NCBI GenBank assembly: GCA_943704415.1
Contig: CALSCO010000308.1
Coordinates: forward strand, 1-31,967
Direction: 5' to 3'
Source of the DNA: Parvularia atlantis
Taxonomy: Eukaryota > Opisthokonta > Rotosphaerida
DNA: 31,967 nt
Each line of letters begins with the position of its first letter. Position 1 is the first letter of the stretch. The notes under the pieces are model-generated. The model saw only the letters and a list, made by a program, of their open reading frames with translations, was not told where the DNA came from and searched no databases. The translations under genes and the position numbers were made by a program. Positions 1,489 to 31,462 of the stretch are shown one piece after another.

Positions 1489-4400
1489 TCAAGTGCTGGT
1501 CGCGGCGCGGATACGCTGGGCACGCGGACGCGACGTGAGACGCACACGAGACGCCGCGAGCGAGCACACCTGCTGCGTCCACGTCGCCGTCTCCCGGTTG
1601 GCGTCGCTGTGCGTGCGCATGCACTCCTGGATCATGGCCGAGATCCACTGCATGTTGGACACGAAGACTGGCCCGGCCGGGCGGCCGCACGAGTCTGCGA
1701 GGTCGCTGCGAGGCGGCGAAGGCGGCAGCGCGTGAGCGCCGGTGCAGTCTGCTGCTGCTGAGCTTGCACGCACCCGAGCATGCCCACGGTCGCGCGCATT
1801 AGCTCCTCCGTCTTGTGAGCGTCGCGGTACACGCGCTCGCCAAACGCGACGATCGTCGGGCAGTGCTGCAGCAGCGGCCGCGACTTGTCTGCGCCCGTTG
1901 TTAGCGGCCGCGGCGACCGCGCGCGTGTGCACGGCACCTGGCCCGGCAAAGACCTGGATGATGCCCGTGTAGCCCTCGACAACGGCCTGGCGCAGCGTCC
2001 CGAGATAGTCGATGTTGTTGATGTCGTTCTGCGCTCGCCCCACGCGTCACGCCCCGCACACAGCGGCGGCCGACGCGCACCGGCGGCAGCTCGACCATGG
2101 ACGCGCCGCGCAGCACATTCATCACGTTGTTGAGGAACGGCAGGAAGTTGTCGGTGATGGCCATGGCCACGTCGCCAAAGCACGAGAGGATGTGCGGCTT
2201 GACGTCGCGGTGAACCTGGTCGTTCTGCGCCGCTGCCAGCAGGAGGGACATGTACGCCTCAACGTAGGGCAGGACCTCGGGGCCGAGCGCGCGGCACACG
2301 TCGCCGATGAGGCCGACTGCGTGCAGGCACACCTGGGGGGTCAGGCCGTGAGCGTCACCATCGCGGCGTCGCGGACGTGCGTGCACACCGTGTGCTCCTG
2401 GATGTTTTGCAGCGAGATGCACAGGAACGGGTGGAAGACGTCCATGTACCGCTTGAAGTCGCGCCCGAGCGCTGTGTCGCGGTGAGCACGGGCGCGCTCG
2501 GGCAAATGGGCGCGCACCGTCGGCGATCGCGCCGATGGCGATGATCGCGTCCTCGACAATCTCGGCCGTGCGGCCCGTCGACGGCGTCGTGAACACGCGC
2601 AGGAAGACTTGCATCGTGAAGTCCGCCAGCGGGGCGATCTGCCGGTCGAGCTTGCGGACGATCGACTGCACAAGGCATCAGTCGCCCCGCCCAAGGCAGC
2701 GCGCGGCGAAGCACGCACCGTCAGCGCCGCGCACAGGTTGGCCTGGTCCTCGACGTGCTCACGACGCTCATCCGCGCCAACGACCTACGGGCGCACGCTT
2801 CAGCCGCAAAGAGAGCGAGGGGACACGGCAAAACACGCACCGGCTTGTCCATGCCCGTGTTGAGGCGGTCGAGCAGGACCTGGGCCAGCTGCAGCAGCAC
2901 CGAGTAGGTGTCCTGCGGGCGCGGCGCCACCATGAGTGTGCAACAGTGCAGGACATCCCGCAACCGCGCGAGCGCACCTCAGTACCGCTGTCGACCAGCG
3001 ACACGAGCGCGGCATAGCCGGTGATGCGCAAGTTGGCGTCGCCGGCGTCGTCGCTGGCACGGCGCGCACGGGCGTCAGCGCGGCACCGCGAGCAGTGCGG
3101 GCGGCGCACCGGCTCACGGCCGACAGCAGCGCCGTGACGAGCTGCGAAAAGTACGCCGAGAGCGGGTACGTCTTGGCCGTGTCGTCCTCCGGCTCGAGGT
3201 TTTCGGCCAGGTTGCTAATGGCCTGTGCGCGCGGGCGATGAGCAAAGGGGTGCATGCGCCCATTTGCACGGGCGCGCACCCAAGCGCAGCTGGCGGCCAC
3301 ACGTGGGTGCGCCTTGAGGCCCCGGATGAGCGCCTCGAGCAGCGGCACAAGGTAGTTGAGCGTCGCGTCGTGCAACAGGTCGCAGACCACGCCGACGGTC
3401 CAGGCCGCCGTGTCCTGCACCGCAATGTTGTTGTCGCCCATGGACGTGATCAGCAGCGGCATGGCCTGCGCGGCGAACGCCACATGAGCAGCCGCACGCG
3501 GGCAGGCTGCATGCGCACCTGCATAGCCAGCGGCGTCAGGTCGGCCGGGCTTGGCCCCTCGAGGATGGACCCTGCAAGCACGCGCGCGCGCGCCGTGAGC
3601 AGACGAGCACACGGCCGTGGTACGGGCGCGCGCACCAAAGGCCATGAGCGCGGCCTCGCGCAGCTGCCACTCGGGCTTCTGGATGTTCAGCTCAATGAAC
3701 GGCAGCACAAAGGTGATGATGGGCTTGCCTGCGGTCGCAGACGGCGGCGTTGGCGGCGCGCGTACGGCAAACCCCTGTGACGCGCACCGACGCATTTCGC
3801 GAGCAGGTAGATGCACGTCGATGACGCCTTGGCCGTGTTCCACTCCTCGTCGTCGATGTCGGCGCTCTGCGTCCGTGCATGTCAGCGCCCGCGCTCCCGA
3901 CCAAAGGCCCCACGGCCGCGCGCACCTGCTTGGTCAGCATGCGCAGCAGCTGCGGCATGATAAGCGGCAGGGCCGCCTCGGCGTAGTTCTTCGACGCGCG
4001 GTCGACCCGTCCGCTCCCGACCTGCAGGCGCGCGTGAGCCGGTCAAGGCAGCAGCAGTGCCCGCCCCTCCCTACCTCCTGCGCCTGGAAGGCAATCTCGC
4101 TCTCGACGTCGCACACGGTCGACCAGAACTCAATCGCCTGCAGCACAACCTCCTCCGTCTCGTTCATCATCGCGTTGACCGTGAGCTGCCGCGCGCGCAA
4201 CCCCCCTCGCTGTCAGCCGCAACGCGGCACACGGGGCACCGGCGCGGGCGCGCGCACCCCGTACAGCGCCGAGTCCATGTAGGGCTGCATGTGCTCGTAG
4301 TAGAGCGACATGATCTTGACGAGGCACTGGAACGCGCTGACCTTGACGGCCTTGTTGGGCTTGAGCGTGGCGCGGCAGACGACCTCCATGACAAAGTTGC

Positions 4401-16597: not shown

Positions 16598-16703
16598 GCC
16601 CCGCGTGCGCCTCCGCGTGCTCGCCACGTCAATCTCGCGCACGTCGTCGCCGTGATCGCGCCGTCATCGTCGGTCGCGCCAAAAAATTAAAAAAGGAGGC
16701 TGC

Positions 16704-18470
16704 TCACGTCGTCACAGTCTCCGGCAACAGACACGACAACGACGGCGTCTCAAAGTCCATGTTGAGCCGGTCGAACGGACTCGGGTGCGAGTGGAAGTGC
16801 ACGCTGAGCTCGGGCAGGGCCGTCAGGTGCTGGTCGTTGAGCGTCGGCGTCGCCACCAGCACCCGGTCGCCCGCGTCGTTCATGTAGTAGATGGCCGGCA
16901 CGAGACCGCGCGCGAGCGACGGCACACGCAGCAGCGCAGCGAGGGTCTCGCGCGGCAGCTGGAACGGGCGCAGCGGGCCCACATACAGCTGCACCGCCGG
17001 CCCGAAGCGGATCCGCACGCGCGCGTACGGCACGTGCACGACGTAGCAGCCCCAGGACGCTGGCCGTCGGGACTGCAGCGGCAGGTCCATTGGGTGCATC
17101 GCCTGGTGCACGCGGCTGCAGACGATCCACCGGTCGCCATCGAGCCGGCCAAACTTGGCGGTCCGGGTGCGGAAGACGACCTCGGTGCCGAGTAGGCCTG
17201 CATGCACCGCCGTGACGCCGTCAGCTGGCACACGCATCGTGCGCGCGGGAGCGGTGGCGTGCCCTTCTGCAGCTCCGCGGTGGGCAGGTCGTCGGGATGC
17301 GACATCTGATTCGTGGTCCACTCGAGCAGCAGCCGCATCAGCCGGTCAAACAGGATCGCGTGCTCGCGCCACGCCGGCTGCACCGTGAACACGGCGTACC
17401 CGTGCTGCGGCACAAACTCGACGTGCCGCCTGCACGCCTCGGCCACTGTCGCACAGTCAGTGGGCGATGCGTGAGAGACGTGCACGGCGCACCGAGGTGG
17501 TTGATCGTGTGCGTGTGCGTCTCGATGTGCCGCGCGAGCCGCATCAACTGCTCCTCGGCGGCCGGCAGTCGCTCGTGCAGCGTGGCGATGATGCGCTCGT
17601 TCTGCTCGGTGCGCCAGTACTGCGCTGTGTCGAGCACGCTCTCGTCGACATCGACCAGGCTGTGCGCCATCGCCGTCTGCCGCAGGCGCTCCTGGTCGCC
17701 GCCCGTCGCCCCTTGTCAGCGGTCGCGTGCGCCGTGCCCGCAGCTCCGCGCACGCACCGGCGAAAAGTCGCACAGGCGCACGAGCGTCCGCGGCGAGCGC
17801 GCCGTGTTGGCTATCCCCATCGGCAGCAGCCGCGCATGGAACGTCCTGTCGACGCGTGGCACGTGCAGCGCGCGCGTCCCGCTCGCCAGCACGTCGTGTG
17901 ACGAGCGCATGCCGAGGACGTGCTGCACGTCGCGCCACTGCGCCACACCGAGCGCGACGCGCAGCGGCCACTTGCGGTCGGTGCCCCAGCCGACCTTCTT
18001 GAGGCACGCAATCCCTGCCGCGCACGCGCCTCAGCCACGGCCCGTCCGTCAGCTGCTCATGCCGCACCCAGCGGCTGCAGCTGGTTGTGCACGCGGTCGG
18101 CTGCGGCGTAGACCTGGTCGTACGGCAGGCCCGGGCGCCCGTGGTAGAACATGATCGCGGTCACGAACGGGCGCTCAAAGTACTGCGCGCTGAGTGCCAG
18201 CAGCGCCTGCTCGTCCTTGCGCACGCCCGCCACGACCACTGCGACGACGGCGCACGCGTCATTACTGATCGCTCGACGCCTGATGCGAAGCGCACCGATC
18301 GGCGTGCGCGGCGTCAGCCCGTGGCGCATCATCGCCGCCGCGAACTCGTCCGCCGCGATCGGCCCCTCGTCGCCCCGTCCGCGCGCTGCCGCCGCTGCCG
18401 TCGACGTCGCCCGCCGCCCCGTCGACGCCGTGCGCCGCATCGCGAAGCGTGACAGCGCGACCTTCGACAT
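16704..18470 (-). CDS. unrecognised conserved-looking protein, 492 aa, head-to-head with RPA32
   Basis: Six exons, in coding order 18470-18296, 18238-18068, 18014-17758, 17691-17493, 17445-17263 and 17197-16704, keep one GC3-rich frame and total a multiple of three. The N-terminus (MSKVALSRFAMRRTASTGRR) is basic and serine/alanine rich. Then come VVVAGVRKDEQALLALSAQY, a probably helical central part (TEQNERIIATLHERLPAAEE) and a beta-rich C-terminal half (GLLGTEVVFRTRTAKFGRLD, SVHFHSHPSPFDRLNMDFET). There is no membrane segment or signal peptide. I do not recognise any domain. Its start codon lies 38 bp from that of RPA32 with an E2F-type site between them, so an S-phase or DNA-related role is inferred, not seen. 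The intron at 17262-17198 starts with GC (GCACGC). Confidence 0.7.
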
Positions 18471-18482
18471 TTTGGCGCGAAA
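18471..18482. promoter_or_regulatory. palindromic E2F/DP binding site between RPA32 and the unknown gene
   Basis: The 12 bases read TTTGGCGCGAAA, a perfect match to the palindromic E2F consensus. It begins directly beside the ATG of the minus-strand gene and lies 27 bp upstream of the RPA32 ATG. E2F sites drive RPA and other replication genes in animals and plants. Position this close to both starts implies very short 5' leaders or transcription starts inside the coding regions. Confidence 0.65.
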
Positions 18483-18508
18483 CGGCAAGAGCGCGCCACC
18501 TGCGTCGA

Positions 18509-19652
18509 ATGGGCTCGCGCTTCGGCTCGTACGGTGCGCCGCGGTGGCGCCGCTTGTTGTTTGCCGTCGCTGACGTGCGCTCGCGCAGGTGGTGGTGGTG
18601 GCGGCGGCTTCATGGGCGCGGGCGGTGACGGCGCCGAGGTGTCGCCGCCGCGCAAGGAGCCGCAGAACAAGGCACGGCCGTGGCGCCATCCCGCGCGTGC
18701 TTCGTGAGGCGGACGCTGACGGGCGGACGGTGCGCAGTCGCTGCTGCCCGTGACGATCAAGCAGCTGCTGGACGCGCGGATGCTGCCCGGCGAGGACAAG
18801 TTCCGCGTGGGCGAGGCCGAGATAACGCAGGTCACCTTCATCGGCGTCATCCGCGCCATCAATCAGCAGGCGACGCACACGGCGTACGAGGTGCGCACCA
18901 GTGCGGATGGGTCGGGCCGCGTGCTCACGACGCGCACGGCCAGATCGAGGACGGCACGGGCGCGATGGAGTGCCGCGAGTTTGTGCCGACCGACGAGCCC
19001 GAGGTGATGGCGCAGCTGCGGAGGATGCGCCGCGAGGACATGTACGTGCGCGTCTTCGGCCAGGTGCGGGCCGCACCCCCCGCTCGATCGCGCGCCGTGT
19101 GTTGCTCACGGAGGTGCGCAGCTCCGGCCGTTTAAGGACAAGCGCAATGTGCAGGTGTTCAACATGCGCCCCGTCACCGAATACAACGAGGTCACGTACC
19201 ACCTGCTCGAGGCCATCCAGACGCACCTCCTGCTCTCGCGCGGCCTGCCCACCGCCGCGATGGCCAACGGCGCGGCCGGCGGCGCGCCCGCGGGCGTCGG
19301 CATGTCGTCGTTCACCGCGGGCCTCACCGGGCTCCCCGCCGGCGGCCACGCGGGCGCCGGTGCCGCGCCGATGGCCGTGGACGCGTCGGGCTTCACGCCA
19401 CTCCAGTCCAAGATTATGCAGGCGCTGCGCAGCCTCGGCACGGGCCCCGAGGGCGCGCACTTTGACGACGTGCGTGCTCCGCGCATGTCTGCACGCCTCG
19501 GGCTCAGCCGTGCGTGTGCGCATGCGCAGATCCTCCGCGCCGTCGCGCCCGAGAGCGCCCCGCGTGTGCGCGACGCGCTCGAATTCCTGGCCAACGAGGG
19601 GCACGCGTTCTCGACCACGGACGAGAACCACTTCAAGAGCACGGACGAGTGA
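18509..19652 (+). CDS. RPA2: replication protein A 32-kDa subunit, 283 aa
   Basis: RPA32 is the middle subunit of the single-stranded-DNA-binding RPA trimer used in replication, repair and checkpoint signalling. Exons are 18509-18533, 18589-18671, 18738-18890, 18944-19063, 19122-19469 and 19530-19652. The N-terminus MGSRFGSYGGGGGGGFMGAG resembles the glycine/serine-rich, phosphorylated tail of RPA2. The OB fold starts LLPVTIKQLLDARM and shows FRVGEAEITQVTFIGVIRAI and MYVRVFGQLRPFKDKRNVQV. After an alanine/glycine linker comes the C-terminal winged helix with RVRDALEFLANEGHAFSTTD and the family ending ENHFKSTDE. Length is close to human (270 aa). The intron at 18672-18737 uses a GC donor (GCACGG). 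It shares a 38-bp start-to-start promoter region with the unknown gene. Confidence 0.95.
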
Positions 19653-30413: not shown

Positions 30414-31141
30414 ATGGCCAGCTCCGCGCAGGCCAAGGCGGCGCGCCCGGCCGGCGGCGCCGCGTCGACGTCCGGGAGCCTGTTCCAGTTCAAGCTCGTG
30501 CTGCTCGGTGCGCGTGGGCGGCGGCGCGCGTCAGGCGCAGAGGGGGGGCCGCGCTGACGCGGCGGCGCGCAGGCGACTCGGCCGTGGGCAAGTCGAGCTT
30601 GGTGCTGCGGTTTGTCAAGGGCCAGTTCCACGAGTACCAGGAGAGCACCATCGGCGGTGCGCGTCACGGCCCGGGCGTCACACGTGGACGGGACGGGCTG
30701 ACGCGACGGCGCGCACAGCCGCGTTCCTGACGCAGACCGTCGTCGTCGACGACACGACGGTAAAGTTTGAGATCTGGGACACAGCCGGCCAGGAGCGGTA
30801 CCACAGCCTAGCGCCGATGTACTACCGCGGCGCGCCGGCCGCGATCGTCGTGTATGACATCACGTACCCTGTGCGTCGCGCATCGGCCGCGGCGTCGTCG
30901 ATGCTACGCGGCGGCTGACGCATGCGCGCGTGCGTGCGCGCGTGTGCAGGAGACGTTTGCACGCGCCAAGACGTGGGTCAAGGAGCTGCAGCGGCAAGCG
31001 AACCCCAACATCGTCATCGCCCTCGTCGGCAACAAGCTCGATCTGTCCTCCAAGCGCGCTGTGCCGACCGAGGCGCGCGCGGCTCGACACAGCACGGCGC
31101 GGCACGGCAGGGCTGACCCCGCGCGGCACGCACCACACACG

Positions 31142-31217
<76 letters not shown>

Positions 31218-31462
31218 ACGCGCAGGTGTACGCGGACGAGAACAACCTGCTGTTCATGGAGACGTCGGCCAAGACCGGGATCAACGTGACCGAGGTGTTT
31301 ACGCTGATCGGTGCGCGTCCACCCGCCATGCTGTGCCGCGCCGCGCACGCTCACCGCCCCGCAGCGCAAAAGCTGCCCAAGACCGAGCCGCCGCGCCCCC
31401 GCGACAACAAGATCGAGCTGGCCGCGACAGCCAACGACGAGAAGAAGAAGGGCTGCTGCTGA
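30414..31462 (+). CDS. RAB5: Rab5 small GTPase, 214 aa
   Basis: Rab5 drives early endosome docking and fusion through EEA1, Vps34 and related effectors. Six exons (30414-30507, 30573-30656, 30719-30870, 30950-31072, 31217-31310, 31365-31462) give a protein of the human length (215 aa). Seen in order: [20 protein letters not shown] (P-loop), the switch I block [15 protein letters not shown], the switch II block [31 protein letters not shown] and the C-terminal double cysteine GCC for geranylgeranylation. The switch I and II sequences are diagnostic of Rab5 among Rabs. The intron at 31073-31216 starts with GC and is swollen to 144 nt by a CA repeat that ends at the acceptor. Its stop lies 205 bp from that of the next gene. 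Confidence 0.97.
31146..31215 (+). repeat. (CA)35 microsatellite inside RAB5 intron 4
   Basis: Seventy bases of pure CA end exactly at the acceptor: the last CA and the following G form the CAG of the splice site. The tract replaces the usual mixed sequence between branch point and acceptor and more than doubles the intron relative to its neighbours. Confidence 0.97.

What the first reader, a model, noticed from the sequence alone, without database searches (positions are those of the whole stretch)
18470..18511. A perfect E2F palindrome fills a 38-bp bidirectional promoter shared by RPA32 and an unknown gene
The start codons of RPA32 (+) and a 492-aa unknown gene (-) are separated by 38 bp, and TTTGGCGCGAAA occupies positions 18471-18482 of that gap. 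RPA genes are E2F targets in animals and plants. A site this close to both ATGs would be expected to switch both genes at once, which points to the unknown gene as a possible S-phase factor. I noticed no other full TTTSSCGC palindrome between genes in this window.
Basis: partly seen in the sequence, partly recalled or inferred. Interest (0 to 1): 0.72.

Follow-up and report, generated by a model that had tools for sequence, protein, structure and literature searches.

The report
E2F switch between two divergent genes
A 38-base gap between a DNA-replication gene and an unknown gene holds a likely binding site for the cell-cycle factor E2F, of the kind that also marks the starts of many replication, repair and cohesion genes in this unidentified compact eukaryotic genome; it is a known kind of switch, and the unknown gene is the open question.

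Summary
The observation largely holds. TTTGGCGCGAAA lies at 18471-18482, in a 38-bp gap between two ATGs (minus 18470, plus 18509). It is not a perfect palindrome (2 of 12 positions break it), but both strands read TTTSSCGC. A second E2F-like core, GCGCGCCA at 18491-18498, was missed. The plus gene is RPA32; the minus gene is a six-exon, 492-codon gene of no recognised family.

TTTSSCGCSAAA has 21 sites in 16.25 Mb (41 strand hits; 3 for the pattern read backwards). Thirteen of 21 lie at starts of replication, repair, cohesion or chromatin genes (11 by Pfam above cut-off, 2 weak); one more lies in POLE2 intron 1. E2F, DP, LIN54-like and LIN9-like domains are encoded. In reverse, a half-site lies near 4 of 10 starts of family-chosen S-phase genes, the full site near none.

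So this is very probably an E2F/DP site controlling RPA32. Control of the minus gene is likely from geometry but unproven, and 'S-phase factor' does not follow: another such gap is shared with an aldo-keto reductase. Known kind of element; the open points are the orphan gene and sites lying almost on start codons.

The parts
18471..18482 (.). E2F/DP-type site TTTGGCGCGAAA (TTTSSCGC on both strands; reverse complement TTTCGCGCCAAA). Abuts the minus-strand ATG; ends 26 nt before the RPA32 ATG
18491..18498 (.). Second E2F-like core GCGCGCCA, 8 bp after the first site. Such a core lies within 30 bp of 7 of the 21 genomic sites (0.46 expected); same 8-bp spacing at the SMC1-like gene
18471..18508 (.). 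38-bp gap between the two start codons (66% GC); putative bidirectional promoter
18509..19652 (+). RPA32 (RPA2) gene; exon 1 18509-18533, intron 1 18534-18588; later exon borders approximate, end taken from the ORF list
   Evidence: Pfam RPA_C 1.2e-7; splice and N terminus; ORFs
16704..18470 (-). Unknown gene, 492 aa; exons 18470-18296, 18238-18068, 18014-17758, 17691-17493, 17445-17263, 17197-16704; introns of 47-66 nt, four GT-AG and one GC-AG. Codon-usage score 0.418 per codon against 0.474 mean of training exons, negative in the five other frames
   Evidence: no family

Best explanation
The 12-bp word is a working E2F/DP binding site in the promoter of RPA32, reinforced by a second E2F-like core 8 bp further on. 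An E2F/DP heterodimer would hold RPA32 off outside S phase and switch it on at G1/S, as part of a genome-wide set of replication, repair, cohesion and chromatin genes that carry the same word a few tens of bases before their ATG. Because the gap is only 38 bp and the site touches the ATG of the divergent gene, that gene is probably switched by the same element; this last step, and any S-phase role of its product, is inferred. Shown: the sequence, the genome-wide concentration at such genes, the presence of E2F and DP genes. Inferred: binding, timing, direction of effect, co-regulation.
For: 21 genomic sites against 3 strand hits of the reversed pattern. 13 of 21 at starts of replication-type genes: RPA32, WDHD1/Ctf4, POLD1, MSH6, STAG, MCM10, histone H2A, TIMELESS, RFC small subunit beside a divergent H3, CDC6/ORC1-type, SMC1-like (these 11 above Pfam cut-offs), plus a BARD1-type RING gene and a DCLRE1-like gene (both below cut-off); a 14th, POLE2, has it in intron 1. 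Binomial chance of 11 of 21 is about 1e-7 if 8% of places would qualify by chance and 0.001 if 20% (the 8% and 20% are my assumptions). RPA32's 26 bp fits the other site-to-ATG distances: 10, 11, 20, 25, 32, 35, 36, 58, 72, 113, 140. E2F and DP DNA-binding domains are close to human E2F4 and DP2 of 1cf7, and an atypical tandem-domain E2F is present. Second core: 7 of 21 sites within 30 bp, 0.46 expected; composite pattern 16 against 0 reversed.
Against: No binding or expression data. Seven of 21 sites are not at the start or in the first intron of a recognised replication-type gene (C79, C118, C232, C357:6880, C443, C489, and C580, where it lies in the coding end of RNASEH2A). The reverse test finds the full 12-mer at 0 of 10 and the half-site at 4 of 10 family-chosen S-phase genes. 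No relatives were available, so conservation of the site could not be tested. Retinoblastoma-type RB_A was not found, though that search was inconclusive.
Confidence: 0.85

Rival explanations
1. True bidirectional control: the site switches RPA32 and the 492-aa gene together, and the unknown protein is an S-phase or DNA-repair factor.
For: The site touches the minus ATG. MCM7-like has a half-site 5 bp before its ATG, and the RFC site lies right behind its ATG with a divergent H3 starting 40 bp from RFC, so sites this close to ATGs recur. The unknown gene is a real coding gene.
Against: The site is fully accounted for by RPA32 alone. An aldo-keto reductase starts 71 bp from the DCLRE1-like gene across another such site, so sharing the gap does not imply a replication role. 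No family, no structure; the last exon folded alone at pLDDT 34.5.
Confidence: 0.45
2. The site serves RPA32 only; the minus gene merely lies next door and starts from elsewhere, possibly from a later ATG (Met11, or Met47/48).
For: Codon-usage score of residues 1-46 is low (0.132 per codon; residues 11-30 negative) against 0.624 for residues 47-120, so the first ATG is not certain; a later start would widen the gap.
Against: Residues 1-10 score 0.414 in frame and no stop interrupts exon 1. Any other start still leaves the same promoter region upstream.
Confidence: 0.4
3. The word is bound by a fungal-type SBF/MBF (Swi4/Mbp1) factor, whose sites share CGCGAAA, rather than by E2F.
For: TTTGGCGCGAAA contains CGCGAAA (SBF/MBF consensus recalled, from no call).
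Against: 9 of the 21 sites are TTTGGCGCCAAA, which lacks it, and 6 of these 9 sit at starts of replication-type genes with a seventh in POLE2 intron 1. E2F and DP genes are present. The KilA-N domain of SBF/MBF was not searched for.
Confidence: 0.05
4. Chance match.
For: Half-sites in the window are not in excess.
Against: 41 strand hits against 3 reversed, and the gene company the sites keep.
Confidence: 0.03

Closest known systems
E2F/DP sites (TTTSSCGC) of animal and plant S-phase promoters
   Same: Consensus on both strands, target genes (RPA, POLD1, MCM10, CDC6/ORC1, MSH6, RFC and others), E2F and DP proteins encoded. The second core contains GCGCGCC, the sequence of the E2F4/DP2 co-crystal (passages of PMC4686757).
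   Different: Sites sit 10-72 bp before the ATG in 9 of the 12 targets for which I measured a distance (RPA32 included), and touch or overlap start codons here and at RFC, which would force very short 5' leaders.
DREAM-type tandem elements (CDE/CHR, E2F/CLE) read by E2F-DP and LIN54
   Same: TTTGAA/TTCAAA is the most enriched of 1008 six-mers near the 21 sites (5 against 0.13 expected). Three of the five lie exactly 3 bp after the 12-mer, i.e. 4 nt after the GCGSSAA core, the spacing given for human tandem sites (passages of PMC5716687). LIN54-like double CXC and LIN9 DIRP domains are encoded.
   Different: The window's own site has no TTTGAA/TTCAAA within 60 bp, so it is not a tandem element of this kind. 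In the human S-phase set of PMC5716687 only one canonical TTTGAA was seen at that spacing; here TIMELESS and MCM10 have it.
Hybrid E2F/DP-CHR motif of Tetrahymena Anqa1 (PMC8216455)
   Same: A protist E2F-CHR hybrid motif (passages), so the kind is known outside animals.
   Different: There found by ChIP-seq; here from sequence alone, in an unidentified genome.
Tandem E2F sites of the p107 promoter (PMC2891812)
   Same: Two E2F sites in one promoter (search listing only).
   Different: Single-gene promoter; spacing not compared.

Membership tests
E2F/DP binding site | TTTSSCGC consensus | tested here: met
   Both strands, 18471-18478 + and 18475-18482 -
E2F/DP binding site | E2F and DP proteins in the same genome | tested here: met
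   PF02319 at C239 (E2F), C26 (DP), C313 (two domains); a weaker match at C569 is below cut-off
E2F/DP binding site | Motif concentrated at S-phase genes | tested here: met
   13 of 21 full sites at starts of replication-type genes, 11 of them by Pfam above cut-off
E2F/DP binding site | S-phase genes chosen without regard to the motif carry it | tested here: inconclusive
   TTTGGCGC within about 130 bp of the start in 4 of 10 (0.12 expected), full 12-mer in 0 of 10
E2F/DP binding site | Occupied by E2F/DP in vivo; cell-cycle expression depends on it | not testable with these tools
   needs ChIP and reporters
DREAM-type E2F/CHR tandem | TTTGAA-type CHR 4 nt from the E2F core | tested here: not met
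   Window site: none within 60 bp. Met at C79, C312 and C434
DREAM-type E2F/CHR tandem | MuvB and pocket proteins encoded | tested here: inconclusive
   LIN54-like CXC and DIRP found; RB_A not found but 'nothing rang anywhere'
Bidirectional promoter | Two transcription starts within one short gap, co-expressed genes | not testable with these tools
   Only geometry known: 38 bp between ATGs

The most novel reading that the evidence does not exclude
The orphan 492-aa protein is a lineage-specific S-phase or single-strand-DNA factor expressed with RPA32 from one shared core promoter in which the E2F site itself lies at the start codon, so that E2F/DP binding overlaps the transcription starts of both genes and mRNA leaders are nearly absent.
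Probability: 0.25. Interest if true: 0.65.

Novelty: new member of a known kind. Interest (0 to 1): 0.42.

Why it matters
It shows from sequence alone that an unidentified compact, high-GC eukaryote has an animal- and plant-like E2F regulon, partly with E2F-CHR tandems at the spacing known from human DREAM promoters, and it lists orphan genes (the minus gene here; the plus gene at C79, whose start has E2F, CHR and a second E2F core) as candidates for unknown S-phase proteins. If binding so close to the ATG is real, it is a very compact version of the switch.

Tried and rejected
Perfect palindrome: rejected (2 of 12 positions). Half-site counts as evidence: rejected, window half-sites are at chance level. 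Naming the unknown gene: Pfam gave only matches at E 0.089 and 0.16, PDB one at 0.43, NCBIfam one at 0.12, all below any cut-off; my passing thought of a MutS relative had no support in any call. Folding its last exon gave pLDDT 34.5, uninformative, so no fold search was made. POLE2 was first counted as a promoter site; splicing showed the site in a 151-nt intron 1 behind a T-run that may be its polypyrimidine tract, so it is kept apart. RNASEH2A was dropped because the site lies in its 3' coding part (FDFFAPK). The MCM6-like half-site lies in what I read as intron 1 and the MCM3-like one in coding sequence, so neither was counted. Enrichment of TTTGAA was re-tested against other AT-rich six-mers because promoters are AT-richer: 5 against 0.36, P 4e-5, about 0.007 after correction for 181 words, weaker than the raw 3e-7. 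Capsaspora cell-cycle paper (passages of PMC7098662): periodic RB and E2F7 but the words 'motif' and 'promoter' do not occur in it, so no promoter comparison. A search for E2F with Capsaspora and DREAM gave 0 papers; one for E2F, RPA2 and bidirectional promoter gave 1 (FOXM1/RHNO1; listing only).

Full report
What is there. The word TTTGGCGCGAAA stands at 18471-18482. The ATG of a minus-strand gene ends directly before it (18470-18468) and the RPA32 ATG follows 26 nt after it (18509), so the gap is 38 bp. The word is not a perfect palindrome: its reverse complement differs at 2 of 12 positions, but both strands match TTTSSCGC. It is the only full site of this kind in the window; the 10 half-sites are at chance level (7.2 expected, 22 of 100 shuffles reach 10).

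The two genes. RPA32 is supported by RPA_C (E 1.2e-7) and by the N terminus MGSRFGSYGGGGGGGFMG after removal of a 55-nt intron; likeness of that start to other RPA32 proteins is recalled. The minus gene splices into six exons and 492 aa with introns of 47-66 nt, four GT-AG and one GC-AG. Its codon-usage score, trained on other loci, is 0.418 per codon against a training mean of 0.474, and negative in the five other frames, so it is a real gene; its first 46 residues score low (0.132). It matches no family in Pfam, NCBIfam or the PDB sequences, and its last exon folded alone is uninformative (pLDDT 34.5).

Genome-wide test, forward. The genome has 16.25 Mb in 616 contigs, unnamed. TTTGGCGCGAAA occurs 11 times and the word read backwards 0 times. 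TTTSSCGCSAAA occurs at 21 places (41 strand hits, 3 for the reversed pattern): 11 TTTGGCGCGAAA, 9 TTTGGCGCCAAA, 1 TTTCCCGCCAAA. I fetched the surroundings of the 20 other places, picked coding segments with a codon score (one search lists those within 1.7 kb) and sent selected segments, not all, to Pfam (nothing from L024 and L033 was sent). Site at the start of: RPA32 (window, 26 bp to ATG), WDHD1 (C90, 35), POLD1 (C179, 72), MSH6 by MutS_I (C203, 11), STAG (C207, 113), MCM10 (C312, 25), histone H2A (C350, 140), TIMELESS (C434, 10), RFC small subunit (C518, site as codons 2-5, divergent H3 43 bp away), CDC6/ORC1-type (C570, 58), SMC1-like (C601, 36): 11, each with a Pfam match above its cut-off. 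Weaker: BARD1-type RING (C267, 32; zf-RING_6 E 6e-4, below cut-off) and a DCLRE1-like metallo-beta-lactamase fold (C357, 20; Lactamase_B_2 E 2e-4, below cut-off). Exact paralogue names (SMC1, MSH6, H2A.Z, CENP-A-like H3, DCLRE1) are by eye. POLE2 (DNA_pol_E_B 2.4e-21) has the site in a 151-nt intron 1, 184 bp after the ATG. The other seven: C79 (unknown gene, ATG 40 bp off), C118, C232, C357:6880, C443, C489 (a homeodomain gene lies downstream) and C580 (3' coding part of RNASEH2A). Of 10 other segments from the same loci scanned as background, none hit a replication or repair family; 8 hit other families, one of them histone deacetylase. Binomial chance of 11 of 21 is 1.4e-7 at an assumed 8% and 0.001 at an assumed 20%.

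Genome-wide test, reverse. By family I found 8 MCM genes, PCNA and two RNR2 genes. Upstream sequence was fetched for 7 MCMs, PCNA and both RNR2s; for the eighth MCM (C253) only 400 bases to the contig end were fetched, and it was left out of the count. TTTGGCGC lies 5 bp before the MCM7-like ATG, 23 bp before the MCM4-like one, 118 bp before PCNA and 127 bp before one RNR2: 4 of 10, 0.12 expected in 150 bp each (P 8e-6). The other 6, including the second RNR2, have none there, and none of the 10 has the full 12-mer. So the full site marks part of the regulon, not all of it.

The factors. PF02319 finds an E2F domain (C239), a DP domain (C26) and a gene with two such domains (C313), with a weaker match at C569. 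The nearest solved chains are E2F-4 (5.6e-13) and DP-2 (2e-32) of the E2F4/DP2-DNA complex 1cf7. A tandem-CXC protein like LIN54 (C132) and a LIN9-type DIRP domain (C11) are encoded. RB_A was not found, but the tool states that this does not show absence.

Fine structure. Within 60 bp of the 21 sites TTTGAA/TTCAAA is the most enriched of 1008 six-mers (5 against 0.13, P 3e-7 uncorrected); against other AT-rich words it is 5 against 0.36 (corrected about 0.007). Three of the five (C79, C312 MCM10, C434 TIMELESS) lie exactly 3 bp after the 12-mer, i.e. 4 nt after GCGSSAA, the spacing given for human CDE/CHR and E2F/CLE elements (passages of PMC5716687); CHR is TTYRAA for LIN54 (passages of PMC4974476). 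Genome-wide, TTTGGCGC followed within 30 bp by TTTGAA or TTCAAA gives 6 + 9 matches against 0 + 0 reversed (one place, C79, is in both lists and two strings occur twice); one, at C431, lies before an RNR2 gene, the rest outside the 21 sites were not examined. The window site has no such element within 60 bp. It does have a second core GCGCGCCA at 18491-18498, as do 7 of the 21 sites within 30 bp (0.46 expected); TTTGGCGC-N6-26-GCGCGCCA gives 16 matches against 0 reversed, 6 of them at the 21 sites, and one upstream of the DP gene's DNA-binding exon whose promoter status I could not settle.

What this says about the unknown gene. Short head-to-head gaps recur at these sites: RFC and a divergent H3 (40 bp), a DCLRE1-like gene and an aldo-keto reductase (71 bp), POLD1 and an unknown gene (109 bp). 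The H3 pair fits shared S-phase control; the aldo-keto reductase warns that a partner need not be an S-phase gene. Hence: E2F control of RPA32 very likely, control of the partner plausible, function of the partner unknown.

Known or new. E2F-DP sites, tandem E2F sites and E2F-CHR hybrids are known, the last also from Tetrahymena (passages of PMC8216455). I count the find as a new member of a known kind. I found no paper on an RPA2 bidirectional E2F promoter in one search of the held library (1 paper, on FOXM1/RHNO1), which is far from showing that none exists.

Noticed in passing
L022 3891-3942 (G000:C79:22890-22941): E2F palindrome, then TTCAAA at the CHR spacing, then a second GCGCGCCAAA, 40 bp before the ATG of a gene that matched no Pfam family in the one segment scanned: a strong candidate for an unknown cell-cycle gene.
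   Followed up: partly
L038 about 3180-3960 (G000:C518): A divergent histone H3 (HAGRVTIMPRD, LQEAAEVFLV; CENP-A-like by eye, without the canonical H3 tail) starts 40 bp from an RFC small-subunit gene across an E2F palindrome that is codons 2-5 of RFC.
   Followed up: partly
L052 48-85 (G000:C431) and L053 (G000:C538): Two RNR small-subunit genes: one with TTGGCGCCAGAATTTTGGCGCCAGAAATTCAAA before its ATG, the other without any such element in the fetched 600 bases; recalls a replicative and a constitutive RNR2.
   Followed up: partly
L028, L041 and window sites: RPA32, SMC1-like and STAG promoters share TTTGGCGCSAAACG followed after a few bases by GCGCGCCACC.
   Followed up: partly
L025 3910 (G000:C121): POLE2 and its divergent partner start about 20 bp apart; the E2F-like palindrome is in an unusually long (151 nt) intron 1, directly after a T-run.
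   Followed up: partly
window 16676-16683, minus strand: Half-site TTTGGCGC in TTTTTTGGCGCGACC, just past the stop of the unknown gene and before the next minus-strand gene; may be chance.
   Followed up: no
window 17262-17198, minus strand: A GC-AG intron in the unknown gene.
   Followed up: no
window 30904-31329: Long CA/GT dinucleotide run visible in the translations.
   Followed up: no
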